5,950 nucleotides of DNA, taken from the NCBI GenBank assembly GCA_004562975.1, contig SFQP01000168.1:1-5950 (forward strand), given 5' to 3'. This DNA is from a bacterium. Lineage in GTDB: Bacteria > Bacteroidota > Bacteroidia > Bacteroidales > Bacteroidaceae. The notes beneath the pieces are model-generated. The model did not search any database. It was not told where the DNA came from and was given only the letters and a program-made list of their open reading frames with translations. A program made the translations under genes and the position numbers. Shown in pieces: positions 2,318 through 4,995 of this stretch (position 1 is its first letter; each line of letters starts with the position of its first letter).

Positions 2318-2485
2318 ATGAGAAAAGTATATCAACAACCGCGCTCTTCGGCCATCCAGTTCCGGCCTGAAGCGCACCTGATGGAGACCTCCCGCATCCC
2401 CATCGGCGGAACTACGGACAGCTTCGACAGCAACCGGCGCGAACAGCCTTCCATCTGGACCGAATGGGACGAAGAAGAGGAATAG
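2318..2485 (+). CDS. Small 55-aa Bacteroidales protein with acidic tail
   Basis: The ORF runs from ATG at 2318 to TAG at 2483-2485 and starts 24 nt after the stop of the secreted protein, so the two are probably co-transcribed. A weak purine-rich stretch (GGAAAA, 2305-2310) precedes the start. The protein begins MRKVYQQPRS, has a central RIPIGGTTDSFDSNRRE segment and ends WTEWDEEEE. It has no signal peptide or membrane segment. Its layout (a basic Met-Lys/Arg-Lys start with a Tyr and Pro, a central IP-GG-T-D-FD motif, and an acidic Trp-rich end) resembles small uncharacterised Bacteroides/Prevotella proteins as I remember them. No function is known to me. The strong terminator 46 nt after the stop supports a real end of transcription here. 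Confidence 0.7.
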   Translation: MRKVYQQPRSSAIQFRPEAHLMETSRIPIGGTTDSFDSNRREQPSIWTEWDEEEE

Positions 2486-2518: not shown

Positions 2519-2530
2519 TATAGCAAGCAA

Positions 2531-2578
2531 GCGGCGCGAAAGGCCACCCGGAGGGGGGCACTTCGCGCCGCTTCTTTT
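2531..2578 (+). terminator. Rho-independent terminator
   Basis: GCGGCGCGAA (2531-2540) is perfectly complementary to TTCGCGCCGC (2562-2571), a 10-bp GC-rich stem with a 21-nt loop, followed at once by TTCTTTT (2572-2578). It closes the transcription unit of the secreted protein and the 55-aa gene. It also insulates the repeat-flanked cassette that starts seven bases later. Confidence 0.85.
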
Positions 2579-2584
2579 GAAGGG

Positions 2585-2690
2585 CTATAGAAAACTATAG
2601 ATAACTATAGAAATCCTATGGAAAACTATAGAAATCTATAGAAATCTATAAAATCCTATAGAAATCTATCCCCTTCTATAAAAGCTATAG
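2585..2690 (+). repeat. Left 10-bp CTATAG array
   Basis: Eleven copies of CTATAG or a one- to two-base variant start at 2585, 2595, 2605, 2616, 2626, 2636, 2646, 2656, 2666, 2676 and 2685. The period is thus almost exactly one DNA helical turn. The spacer is mostly AAAT or AAAA, which gives the otherwise palindromic unit a direction: CTATAGAAAT on the + strand. The variants are CTATGG (2616), CTATAA (2646, 2676) and CTATCC (2666). The same unit occurs reversed at 3462-3537. I found no CTATAG arrays elsewhere in the window. Confidence 0.95.
2595..2615 (+). repeat. Perfect 21-bp inverted repeat, left arm
   Basis: These 21 bases are exactly the reverse complement of 3487-3507, across two repeat units including the non-palindromic ATAA and AAAT spacers. 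Pairing extends imperfectly over about 57 bp (2585-2641 with 3462-3517), with 28 of the first 30 positions complementary. That is more than chance similarity between two arrays of the same short unit needs. Confidence 0.9.
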
Positions 2691-2701
2691 CTTGATTGCG
2701 C

Positions 2702-2709
2702 TAAATTTG
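2702..2709 (+). promoter_or_regulatory. Candidate Bacteroidetes -7 element for the four-helix gene
   Basis: TAAATTTG matches the Bacteroidetes -7 consensus TAnnTTTG exactly and lies 32 nt upstream of the ATG at 2742. No good TTG-type -33 element sits at the usual distance, because that position falls inside the last units of the left array. The cassette would therefore carry its own promoter, with the array in the place of the upstream promoter region. Confidence 0.5.
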
Positions 2710-2728
2710 CCGCTGAACCCTTAAATCC

Positions 2729-2734
2729 GGAAAG
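2729..2734 (+). promoter_or_regulatory. Ribosome binding site candidate
   Basis: GGAAAG lies seven bases before the ATG at 2742. It is a modest Shine-Dalgarno-like sequence that supports this start over later in-frame ATGs. Confidence 0.4.
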
Positions 2735-2741
2735 ACAGCCT

Positions 2742-3458
2742 ATGACAGAAAAGAATGTGGAGTCTTTGCACGTGATGCGCACCGGCAGCCGCTGGCAGGA
2801 TTTGCACCTTTACCAGGCGGCACGGTCCGGAAAGCAGAACATCGTGGAGGGTTCGGAGAACGGCAAGACCTCTACCGAGATGGAGCTCAAGCTGTTGAAC
2901 GTGGCGCGCTCCAGTATCAGCGAACTGCGGGAGGACTATAAGGACCACCTCACCGCACGCGGCATGGAGCAGTGGGACGCGCAACATCCACGCTATGCCA
3001 AGTTGCGGGAGTTCACCCGGAAACGCAATTCCTGGGAGGACTATCGCGACTTTGCCAACCGCTGTACCGAGGAGGAGCTGTCTAACCTGGGGCTCACGCT
3101 CTGCTACCAAATGGACTCGATGCTCAATCGCTACCTGAAGTCGGTGGAGCAGCATTTCATCACCGAGGGCGGCCTGAAGGAGCGTATGCACAAAATGCGC
3201 ACCGGCTACCGACAGCAACAAGACGAGGAGTTCCGGCAACTGCAACAGGAGAACGAAGCCCTGCGGCAGGAATGCCAGACGTTGCGGCAGTCACTTGCCT
3301 CCGCCAATGCCCGCTACAACGACCTCCGAGCCCGCGCCCTGAAAGCCTACAACGGGCAGAAGGCGCAGATTGAAGAGCTTCAAGCGAAGATTGGAGCGCT
3401 TGCCGCGCAGTTGGAGCGGCGCAAAGGCGCAGGTTCGCCCGAGGCGGAGCCGCGATAG
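2742..3458 (+). CDS. Four-helix-bundle suffix-domain protein with C-terminal coiled coil
   Basis: The 238-aa product belongs, by recognition, to the Bacteroidetes proteins that pair an S23/Avd-like four-helix bundle with a 'suffix' domain. Key stretches are SRWQDLHLY (16-24), QAARSGKQNIVEGS (25-38), EMELKLLNVARSSISELREDY (46-66), RGMEQWDAQHPRYAKL (73-88) and FITEGGLKERMHKMR (139-153). Relatives include the proteins encoded in 23S rRNA intervening sequences and the accessory protein of diversity-generating retroelements, which bind nucleic acid. The function of this branch is not established to my knowledge. Two oddities stand out. About 30 residues expected between LHLY and QAARSG (most of helix 1 and the start of helix 2) are missing. 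Residues about 157-228 form a long Gln/Glu/Leu-rich heptad region predicted to be a coiled coil. There is no signal peptide, so the protein is cytoplasmic. The gene sits alone between inverted CTATAG arrays, with its own candidate -7 element. Confidence 0.85.
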   Translation: MTEKNVESLHVMRTGSRWQDLHLYQAARSGKQNIVEGSENGKTSTEMELKLLNVARSSISELREDYKDHLTARGMEQWDAQHPRYAKLREFTRKRNSWEDYRDFANRCTEEELSNLGLTLCYQMDSMLNRYLKSVEQHFITEGGLKERMHKMRTGYRQQQDEEFRQLQQENEALRQECQTLRQSLASANARYNDLRARALKAYNGQKAQIEELQAKIGALAAQLERRKGAGSPEAEPR

Positions 3459-3461
3459 CCG

Positions 3462-3537
3462 CTATTGGAAATTATAGGTTTCTATAGATTTCTATAGTTA
3501 TCTATAGGCTTCTATAGCTATCTATAGCTTCCTATCT
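3462..3537 (-). repeat. Right 10-bp CTATAG array, inverted
   Basis: Eight copies of CTATAG or a variant start at 3462, 3472, 3482, 3492, 3502, 3512, 3522 and 3532, with an exact 10-bp period. The variants are CTATTG (3462), TTATAG (3472) and CTATCT (3532). Spacers such as ATTT and TTAT are the complement of those on the left, so the array is in opposite orientation. It begins three bases after the stop of the four-helix gene and ends 21 bases before the sulfatase ATG. Confidence 0.95.
3487..3507 (-). repeat. Perfect 21-bp inverted repeat, right arm
   Basis: Exact reverse complement of 2595-2615. In single-stranded DNA or a read-through transcript, the two arms would place the four-helix gene in the loop of a long stem, as the end repeats of rRNA intervening sequences do. 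Confidence 0.9.
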
Positions 3538-3558: not shown

Positions 3559-4995
3559 ATGCTCAACCGAATTGTTTTCAGCGGCTGTGCCGGTTTGACG
3601 GCTTTGGCCGCTGGGGCGCAATCGCGGCCCAATATCCTTTACATCATGTGCGACGACATGGGTTATGGCGACCTCGCTTGCTACGGCCAGCAGTTAATTG
3701 CCACGCCCCACATCGACCGCCTTGCCGCCGAAGGGATGCGCTTCACCCAGGCGTATGCCGGCAGCCCCGTGTCGGCCCCGTCGCGCGCCACTTTCATGAC
3801 AGGCCAGCACACCGGCCACACCCATGTCCGGGCCAACAAAGAATATTGGAGCGGCAGCGTCCGCTATGGCGACAATACCGACTATGCCGTCGTGGGCCAA
3901 GAACCATACGACACCGCCCACATCATCCTGCCCGAAATCTTCCGCGACAACGGCTACACCACCGGTATGTTCGGCAAATGGGCCGGCGGCTACGAAGGAT
4001 CCCCCTCCACGCCCGACCGTCGTGGCATCGACGAGTTCTACGGCTACATCTGCCAGTTTCAGGCCCACCTCTATTTCCCCAACTTCCTCAACAGCTACAG
4101 CCGTGCGGCGGGCGATGCCGGAGTGAAGCGTGAGGTGTTGGAACAGAACATCCCATATCCCATGTTCGGCCCTGACTACAAGCAGCGTGCACAGTACTCC
4201 GCCGACCTCATCCACCGCCGTGCGTTGGAATGGCTTGACCGCCAGACCCCCGACCGCCCCTTCCTCGGCATCTTCACCTACACTCTGCCACACGCCGAAC
4301 TGGCGCAGCCCGAGGATTCCCTCCTCTTGGCCTATAAAGGCCGTTTTTGCCAGGAGCGCACCTATGCCGGCAGCGCAGGTTCCCGTTACAACCCCACCGA
4401 CTGCGGCCATGCCGAGTTTGCCGCCATGATTTCTCGTCTTGATGCCCAGGTGGGCGAAATCATGGCCAAGCTGCGCGAAAAAGGGCTCGACTCCACCACC
4501 GTCGTCATCTTTACCTCCGACAACGGCCCCCATGAGGAAGGCGGAGCCGACCCCACCTTCTTCAACCGCGACGGCCTGTTGCGCGGCATCAAGCGCAGCA
4601 CCTACGAAGGCGGCATCCGCATCCCCTTCATCGTCCGTTGGCCCGGCCACGTCCCTGCCGGCACCGTCAACCCCCACCAGCTCGCCTTCTACGACCTCAT
4701 GCCCACCTTCTGCGACCTCGCCGGCATCACCCGTTACGAAGAGCGTTACCGCAACACCTCCCTTGCCGCCGACCCCTTCGACGGCCTCTCCTTCCTGCCC
4801 ACCCTCTTGGGGCGTTCCGGCCAGCCCGAGCACGAATACCTCTACTGGGAGTTCTCCGAAACCGACATGATGGCCGTGCGCATGGGCAATTGGAAACTCG
4901 TGGTCAAGCAGGGCAACACACCGACAGTCCCCTATTCCCCGTCACGTTGCCTGAGTGAGGTTATCCGTGTTCCTAATTTTTTTCACCCTTGTTAA
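3559..4995 (+). CDS. Secreted S1-family sulfatase, serine-type, C-terminus frameshifted
   Basis: The 478-aa product is a formylglycine-dependent sulfatase that would hydrolyse sulfate esters, probably on host or dietary glycans. A signal peptide ends near ALAAGA (cleavage after about residue 20). Metal-site residues include D32-D33 (CDDMGYGD) and D321-N322 (TSDNGPH). The signature PVSAPSRATFMTG spans 70-82, with Ser72 as the nucleophile to be converted to formylglycine; because this is Ser rather than Cys, an anaerobic radical-SAM maturase is expected elsewhere. Other expected residues are K140 (FGKW), H245 (LPHAEL) and K345 (LRGIKR). The usual His after GKW is Ala142. Homology runs to about residue 452 (NWKLVVKQG). 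The last 26 residues are out of frame, while the expected end QHTDSPLFPVTLPE is encoded in another frame at 4914-4958. Most of the C-terminal subdomain (roughly 30-40 residues) is missing, so activity is doubtful. The exact substrate cannot be told from sequence. Confidence 0.9.
   Translation: MLNRIVFSGCAGLTALAAGAQSRPNILYIMCDDMGYGDLACYGQQLIATPHIDRLAAEGMRFTQAYAGSPVSAPSRATFMTGQHTGHTHVRANKEYWSGSVRYGDNTDYAVVGQEPYDTAHIILPEIFRDNGYTTGMFGKWAGGYEGSPSTPDRRGIDEFYGYICQFQAHLYFPNFLNSYSRAAGDAGVKREVLEQNIPYPMFGPDYKQRAQYSADLIHRRALEWLDRQTPDRPFLGIFTYTLPHAELAQPEDSLLLAYKGRFCQERTYAGSAGSRYNPTDCGHAEFAAMISRLDAQVGEIMAKLREKGLDSTTVVIFTSDNGPHEEGGADPTFFNRDGLLRGIKRSTYEGGIRIPFIVRWPGHVPAGTVNPHQLAFYDLMPTFCDLAGITRYEERYRNTSLAADPFDGLSFLPTLLGRSGQPEHEYLYWEFSETDMMAVRMGNWKLVVKQGNTPTVPYSPSRCLSEVIRVPNFFHPC
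4914..4958 (+). pseudogene. Remnant of the original sulfatase C-terminus, out of frame
   Basis: This stretch reads QHTDSPLFPVTLPE and then TGA in the frame shifted +2 relative to the sulfatase. Sulfatases of this group commonly end in an (H)T-S-x-F-x-VTLP tail as I remember them, so this is the native end of the gene. The junction with the upstream homologous part lies at about 4906-4917. A deletion that was not a multiple of three explains both the missing segment and the frame change. Confidence 0.8.

What the first reader, a model, noticed from the sequence alone, without database searches (positions are those of the whole stretch)
2585..3537. Four-helix-bundle gene enclosed by inverted 10-bp repeat arrays
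Eleven CTATAG units on the left and eight on the right lie in opposite orientation and share a perfect 21-bp inverted match (2595-2615/3487-3507) within a roughly 57-bp imperfect one. The enclosed gene belongs to the S23/Avd-like superfamily, whose relatives live in rRNA intervening sequences that are also bounded by inverted repeats. No transposase is present. This could be a new class of non-autonomous element, or an RNA-processed cassette in which the protein binds its own flanking repeats.
Basis: partly seen in the sequence, partly recalled or inferred. Interest (0 to 1): 0.8.

Follow-up and report, generated by a model that had tools for sequence, protein, structure and literature searches.

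The report
Repeat arrays paired with four-helix proteins
The window holds a gene for a four-helix-bundle protein of unknown function, bracketed by short tandem DNA repeats; many relatives of this gene are bracketed by repeats with motifs of their own, which suggests that protein and repeats are working partners and makes a function for the family testable.

Summary
The arrays are real: 11 CTATAG-type units (7 exact) left and 8 (5 exact) right, with a perfect 21-bp inverted match. The gene is a four-helix-bundle-suffix gene with an S23/Avd fold. In 59 of 80 homologous loci a 4-mer recurs five or more times at 8-12 bp within 200 bp of the gene, against 23 of 3,285 control windows. The motif tends to follow the protein tree: 34 changes, shuffled mean 79. 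Arrays of matching motif are scattered through the same genomes, even in loops of coding genes. Plain four-helix (S23-type) genes of Bacteroidota, Cyanobacteria and others often have inverted arrays, mostly of 7-mers: score 20 or more in 19 of 24 and 11 of 17, against 0 of 334 control ORFs. Best reading: each protein recognises its own repeat and the pair evolves together. Binding and transposition are not shown. An RNA stem is possible for the window, not for directly oriented relatives with non-palindromic cores. In an order-wide draw only 12 of 29 suffix genes had a detectable array, and some genomes hold arrays without a matching gene.

The parts
2529..2573 (+). Terminator-like hairpin of the upstream gene, just before the left array
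   Evidence: Inverted repeat I11, arms 2529-2549 and 2553-2573
2585..2690 (.). Left array, 11 CTATAG-type units, period about 10 (7 exact, 4 variants)
2595..2615 (+). Left arm of the perfect 21-bp inverted match
2742..3458 (+). Four-helix-bundle-suffix protein gene (238 aa)
   Evidence: TIGR04258 59.9 bits, cut-off 40; 5,734 homologues at E<=1e-3 among 6,583 candidates
2811..2816 (+). Point at which 30 residues (helix 1) present in P0001 and P0002 are missing
   Evidence: alignment A1
3072..3215 (+). Suffix domain (residues 111-158): last bundle helix, GG, start of the basic helix
   Evidence: model of P0001: H140-172, GG, H175-260
3168..3212 (+). Conserved basic segment GGLKERMHKMRTGYR (residues 143-157), candidate recognition helix (inference)
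   Evidence: invariant residues; variants of the segment listed beside cores
3216..3428 (+). Coiled-coil tail
   Evidence: single 86-residue helix in the model of P0001
3462..3537 (.). Right array, 8 CTATAG-type units, period 10 (5 exact, 3 variants), starting 3 bp after the stop codon
3487..3507 (-). Right arm of the perfect 21-bp inverted match

Best explanation
The gene and its arrays are a cognate pair. The protein is an oligomer of S23/Avd-type four-helix bundles with an added recognition part (here a basic helix running into a coiled coil, in some paralogues a zinc ribbon). It binds tandem copies of one short core, here CTATAG every 10 bp, about one helical turn, so that neighbouring copies bind side by side. 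The core sits beside its own gene and at other sites of the genome. Protein and core change together along lineages, and paralogues in one genome have different cores. SHOWN (for part of the family): arrays at the gene, core clustering on the protein tree, dispersed arrays of the same core, cores kept while spacers change, presence or absence at an orthologous site, unit-wise length change. INFERRED: oligomer, physical binding, DNA rather than RNA as the target in the suffix family, and that binding drives array spread or upkeep, making the pair semi-selfish, rather than serving a host regulon.
For: Arrays at 59 of 80 loci against 23 of 3,285 control windows. Core label (16 cores plus 'none', assigned by eye) needs 34 changes on the protein tree, shuffled mean 79.1, 0 of 200 as low. 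Paralogues in one genome differ: G009 has CTATAG, CCTAGG and ACTAG, G006 has CTATAG, ACTAG, ATCGAT and AACGTT. CTATAG arrays in 3 of 295 genomes of the order, all 3 among the 35 with the gene. AGAGGA arrays in 5 of 23 gene-bearing genomes: three picked because their gene has such an array, a fourth (G011) because its gene is of the same clade, and G008, not expected, whose copy proved to have the clade's motif GGMKERMYRVRTGYR and a GAGGA array; 0 of the 18 others. Cores 602 of 675 identical, spacers 421 of 708, in 13 aligned array pairs. Unit-sized indels between close relatives. Array absent at the same site in G315. Of 6 zinc-ribbon copies read, 2 have 10 or more units. Plain four-helix genes: inverted score 20 or more in 19 of 24 and 11 of 17 against 0 of 334 ORFs.
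Against: No binding data. In the order-wide draw only 12 of 29 suffix genes had a chain of 4 or more, against 53 of 334 control ORFs. Of the 119 tree rows 27 had no assigned core; the TCTAGA label (8 changes for 8 rows) and TGGGG (2 for 2) do not cluster. Arrays without a matching gene: G208 has 41 CTAG hits and no TIGR04258, G230 has CTATAG arrays but its gene has a TCTAGA-type array, G392 has a CTCACCT array and no TIGR02436 match (genomes may be incomplete); 11 of the 20 genomes with CTAG hits lack the gene, several with identical-unit repeats. 4 of 6 zinc-ribbon copies have short arrays or none. The basic segment is nearly invariant while cores differ, so which residues set specificity is unclear. 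The resemblance to a bZIP is not significant.
Confidence: 0.6

Rival explanations
1. Mobile element: gene plus arrays moves as a unit, arrays act as ends, and solo arrays are its non-autonomous copies, as with REP sequences and RAYT; strand-transfer chemistry comes from the host.
For: In 9 of 17 pairs of related loci compared, matches were confined to gene and arrays (L016/L019, L009/L013, L053/L075, L006/L014, L054/L079, L018/L026, L058/L062, L082/L083, L003/L017; gene identity 73-85%, some loci with short flanks). Inverted arrays at plain four-helix genes. One to six copies per genome. Array-free orthologous site.
Against: No catalytic domain found. Suffix arrays often one-sided (19 of 80 with both sides at 5 or more) and often direct. 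The AGE loop of G374 has four CTAG without length change. Copies within G006, G008 and G009 are distant paralogues with different cores, not fresh duplicates. No relative of the suffix protein in viral contigs or phage records.
Confidence: 0.35
2. RNA-processed cassette: the inverted arrays pair in the transcript and enclose the ORF in a loop, as in 23S rRNA intervening sequences, cut by RNase III; the protein binds the stem.
For: Predicted fold of the window pairs 62 of 106 left-array bases with the right array; five plain four-helix loci pair 29 to 57 of 80. Inverted in 23 of 24 plain four-helix genes. The Coxiella IVS is bounded by inverted repeats and holds an S23 ORF (PMC4990558, passages).
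Against: Four directly oriented suffix loci pair 0 to 8 left-array bases with the right array (L003, L016, L052, L110), although L022 with a self-complementary core pairs 59. Solo arrays have no gene. No rRNA in the window.
Confidence: 0.12
3. Host regulon: arrays are operators or RNA sites of a global regulator, kept by selection for gene control.
For: Core conservation; 16 of 25 scattered arrays read lie within 50 bp of the end of an ORF of 80 codons or more. MacGregor 2015 proposed post-transcriptional control for TAACTGA repeats (PMC4679880, abstract, passages and sections 15 and 24).
Against: The two arrays at L161 are absent at the same places of G315; cores differ between paralogues and close clades; some arrays lie inside enzyme loops.
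Confidence: 0.3
4. Unrelated minisatellites: these genomes are full of short repeats made by slippage and the gene is next to them by chance.
For: Short tandem repeats of many motifs occur in these genomes; control ORFs have a chain of 4 or more in 53 of 334.
Against: Enrichment at the gene, core clustering on the protein tree, AGAGGA test, variable spacers with kept cores.
Confidence: 0.05

Closest known systems
S23 / 23S rRNA intervening-sequence protein (PF05635, TIGR02436)
   Different: Not in an rRNA gene; boundaries are tandem arrays; extra suffix and coiled coil; sub-threshold PF05635 score even for the full-length relative (27.8 against 33.8), although PF05635 is the precomputed label of most homologues listed
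Avd of diversity-generating retroelements
   Different: No reverse transcriptase found in the window; template and variable repeats were not searched for
Cyanobacterial STRR and TAACTGA or GGGAATC heptamer repeats (PMC4679880; PMC4692102; PMC2670836)
   Same: Short tandem arrays scattered mainly between genes; heptamers were found here flanking four-helix genes on plasmids of Nostoc, Euhalothece, Planktothrix and others
   Different: Window unit is 10 bp with a palindromic core; 'four helix' occurs 0 times in PMC4679880 and PMC4692102
REP sequences with RAYT transposase
   Same: A gene next to the repeats that it appears to serve, repeats scattered between genes (PMC2817692, PMC3116915 and PMC3733652: listing and start of abstract only)
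   Different: RAYT is a tyrosine transposase; no such domain here; tandem 7-11 bp units instead of 20-40 bp palindromes

Membership tests
TIGR04258 four-helix-bundle suffix | Score above curated cut-off | tested here: met
   59.9 against 40 bits
S23/IVP superfamily (PF05635) | Score above gathering threshold | tested here: not met
   Window protein no match at 1e-3; P0001 27.8 against 33.8; the window copy lacks helix 1
S23/IVP superfamily (PF05635) | Four-helix-bundle fold | tested here: met
23S rRNA intervening sequence | Lies within a 23S rRNA gene | tested here: not met
   0 Rfam matches at gathering score in the window
Diversity-generating retroelement (Avd) | Reverse transcriptase beside the gene | tested here: not met
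   5 window ORFs scanned, none matches a reverse transcriptase; only 5,950 bases held
RAYT/REP | Tyrosine transposase domain in the gene | tested here: not met
DNA transposon / MITE | Target-site duplication and clean empty site | tested here: inconclusive
   Array-free ortholog of a solo-array locus in G315 at 79% identity; junctions too diverged
STRR-type arrays | Tandem 7-bp units | tested here: not met
   Window units are 10 bp; many plain four-helix relatives meet it
Cognate repeat-binding protein | Binds its own array | not testable with these tools
   needs a binding assay

The most novel reading that the evidence does not exclude
The whole S23/IVP/four-helix-bundle superfamily is a class of repeat-partner proteins. 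Each member recognises, maintains and spreads its own short tandem repeat, a core of about 4-7 bp in units of 7 to 11 bp, so that the scattered short repeats of Bacteroidota, Cyanobacteria and others (STRRs) are made or kept by these proteins, without a transposase, and rRNA intervening sequences are one specialised case.
Probability: 0.4. Interest if true: 0.95.

Novelty: categorically new. Interest (0 to 1): 0.85.

Why it matters
S23-type four-helix proteins have no known function (stated in PMC4990558, passages), and were found here in 13 of 14 chosen genomes. Heptamer repeats have been described without a known binding protein; [quoted passage not shown] A cognate pairing would answer both questions, offer a large natural set of matched proteins and short DNA motifs for specificity work, and explain how short repeats settle in intergenic regions and enzyme loops.

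Tried and rejected
Chance or compositional artefact: rejected. Simple minisatellites: rejected on core clustering and the AGAGGA test. Phage or viral cargo: for the suffix protein the viral-contig scan gave no relative, phage records no match, plasmids 1 record. Known RNA family: 0 Rfam matches. Known defence gene: PADLOC gave only a weak match for the window protein, HEC-07, E 3.7e-4, and none for P0001 and P0003. bZIP relationship: profile search gave JunD at E 0.52, not significant. An inverted layout as the general rule: rejected for the suffix family. Conserved solo arrays at L161: array-free in G315, whose own gene content was not tested; G329 and G332 lack the enclosed 3.6-kb ORF altogether. 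Upstream array of L030 against L032: not usable as an empty site, because the homology break falls inside the gene start. A first strand error (minus-strand loci read on the wrong strand) was corrected. Core labels for the tree were assigned by eye; 119 rows were used; rows under 150 aa or identical were dropped; leaving out the 27 'none' rows the labels need 26 changes, for which no shuffle was run. In some searches, 24 of the 30 fetched TIGR02436 loci were kept; the six dropped had the wrong ORF at the locus centre (L278, L279, L291), failed a motif filter although one search shows arrays there (L284, L290), or are of the suffix type (L299). Of 25 plasmid records with a four-helix match 17 were fetched; in one (L310) the gene is not annotated and its ends were guessed from the match. 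The counts depend on alignments that can slip by one unit. The Fisher value for AGAGGA overstates the case, since 4 of the 5 genomes were picked beforehand. That nothing is in print rests, an open-licence library only; of the papers listed I opened five (abstract, passages or sections), and PMC5524665 was seen as a listing only. Early STRR papers are recalled, not read.

Full report
WHAT IS THERE. The window holds two arrays of 10-bp units with core CTATAG on either side of a 238-codon gene (2742-3458). Left 2585-2690: 11 units, 7 exact. Right 3462-3537: 8 units, 5 exact. A 21-bp match is perfect in inverted orientation, and the inverted score of 52 stands far outside 1,000 shuffles (maximum 25). 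The protein is a four-helix-bundle-suffix protein (TIGR04258). Its copy in the window lacks 30 residues, helix 1, which its nearest relatives (P0001, P0002; 96-97% identical where aligned) have.

THE ASSOCIATION IS WIDE. In 59 of 80 a 4-mer recurs at least five times at 8-12 bp spacing within 200 bp of the gene (19 on both sides; 66 of 80 at four or more), against 23 of 3,285 single control windows of the same loci. The cores differ: CTATAG, CCTAGG, ACTAGT, TCTAGA, GCTAGC, and non-palindromic ones such as AGAGGA, AAGAGAC, ATGGAGG and CCGGA. Against this, in an order-wide draw 35 of 295 genomes had the family at E <= 1e-3 (32 over the cut-off), and of the 29 new loci read from it only 12 had a chain of four or more, with 53 of 334 control ORFs: the signal is strongest in the clade around the window.

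THE CORE TENDS TO FOLLOW THE PROTEIN. On a tree of 119 proteins 16 core labels plus 'none' need 34 changes (shuffled mean 79.1, 0 of 200 as low); shuffles ask only for clustering, and TCTAGA and TGGGG do not cluster. Paralogues within a genome have different cores (G009, G006).

ARRAYS OF THE SAME CORE ARE SCATTERED. In 19 genomes with the gene, three-unit CTATAG arrays occur in 10, up to 151 matches, and CTAG arrays in 16; counts include arrays beside the gene; G011 and G018, whose genes have other cores, have none of either. Among 295 genomes of the order CTATAG arrays occur in 3, all with the gene; in two of them they lie beside it, in G230 they do not. CTAG arrays occur in 20, of which 9 have the gene and 11 do not; several of the 11 are identical-unit repeats, but G208 has 41 matches and no gene. 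The AGAGGA pattern was then searched in 23 gene-bearing genomes: found in the four of that protein clade, which had been picked for it, and in G008; the G008 copy, read afterwards, has the clade's motif GGMKERMYRVRTGYR and a GAGGA array. The other 18 had none.

HOW ARRAYS SIT AND CHANGE. Of 25 scattered arrays read, 16 lie within 50 bp of an ORF end. In G374, 5 of 20 lie in a long open reading frame. In one, an IspG linker, relatives carry other arrays at the same place: ACTAGT in G392 and G424, heptamers in others, none in the short forms. In another, an epimerase loop, G374 has four CTAG at 9, 9 and 10 bp with no change of length against most relatives, so that array seems to have arisen by substitutions in place, while five other species have heptamers inserted there. 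In 13 aligned array pairs core positions are identical in 602 of 675 cells and spacers in 421 of 708. Between L030, L032 and L106 (about 92-94% identical) the downstream arrays differ by whole units. At one locus G315 (79% identical) has neither of two solo arrays of G002.

BEYOND THE SUFFIX FAMILY. Of 14 chosen genomes of the genus of G374, 13 had TIGR02436 matches. Of 24 loci kept, 23 have flanks more alike inverted than direct, and 19 score 20 or more, against 0 of 334 control ORFs; the arrays are mostly 7-mers. In G393 the 7-mer beside a four-helix gene (L276) is of the kind found in its epimerase loop (L269); but the CTCACCT arrays of G392, G407, G414 and G430 have no such gene among the loci read. 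Of 17 plasmid-borne four-helix genes from Cyanobacteria, Chloroflexota, Spirochaetota, Bacillota and Bacteroidota, 11 score 20 or more inverted, 12 score higher inverted than direct, and 16 have a chain of four or more. Six copies read carry a zinc ribbon (two checked with Pfam, above cut-off; the others by eye) instead of the coiled coil; two of them have long arrays (L341, L342).

MECHANISM. The simplest reading is that each protein is an oligomer that recognises tandem copies of its own core, one copy per helical turn or less, and that protein and core evolve together. DNA is the likelier target in the suffix family, because non-palindromic arrays may be direct (L016, L101, L110) and L016 and L110 show almost no pairing between the arrays. 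In plain four-helix genes the inverted layout leaves an RNA stem possible. Whether the pair is selfish or serves the host is open: changing cores and settlement at permissive places speak for selfish spread, kept cores for use. All steps from binding onward are inferred.

AGAINST. No binding data; 27 of 119 rows without a core; arrays without a matching gene in G208, G230, G392 and others; nearly invariant basic segment; no mechanism of spread; patterns and labels were partly chosen after seeing the loci; many genomes are metagenome bins and may be incomplete.

KNOWN AND NEW. Heptamer repeats (MacGregor 2015, PMC4679880: abstract, passages, sections 15 and 24; Rehm 2015, PMC4692102: passages) and S23 proteins in rRNA intervening sequences (PMC4990558: passages) are known separately. 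Neither heptamer paper mentions a four-helix protein (0 occurrences). Ten searches of an open-licence library gave no paper seen to link the two; most listed papers were seen as listings only.

Noticed in passing
window 2811-2816: The window gene lacks exactly 30 codons (helix 1) present in its 96-97% identical relatives P0001 and P0002; assembly error or real loss not decided.
   Followed up: partly
window 4900-4995: The sulfatase ORF ends in a tail that does not look like its family (by eye); possibly truncated or rearranged.
   Followed up: no
window 2318-2485; L001 upstream of 5974: A small acidic ORF upstream of the left array has a recognisable counterpart upstream of the L001 gene: left context shared, right context different (by eye).
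   Followed up: no
L310, L317, L318, L319, L320, L321; L030, L032, L041, L050, L106: Four-helix genes sit inside or next to defence operons: HsdS/HsdR, helicase/N6 methylase, DUF1156/Swt1 HEPN, cas2/cas1 (record annotation); the L030 group lies after an HsdS-like end (by eye).
   Followed up: no
L282, L287, L289, L293, L294, L296; L301, L304: Plain four-helix cassettes seem to have further inner inverted repeats next to the arrays: ATGATTAC/GTAATCAT, or TTTGCTACCGCC and its complement (by eye).
   Followed up: no
L161 3022-3072 and 6753-6803: Two CTATAG arrays enclose a 3.6-kb ORF in G002 that is absent from G329 and G332.
   Followed up: partly
L169-L171 (G208): CTAG arrays lie within heptamer-like repeats in a genome without a TIGR04258 match.
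   Followed up: no
L215-L244 linker of IspG; L245-L274 loop of an AGE-type epimerase: Protein loops that collect different short repeats in different species; gene names by eye.
   Followed up: partly
L332, L334, L338, L341, L342, L346: Four-helix proteins with a topoisomerase-type zinc ribbon instead of the suffix coiled coil, two of the six with long arrays.
   Followed up: partly
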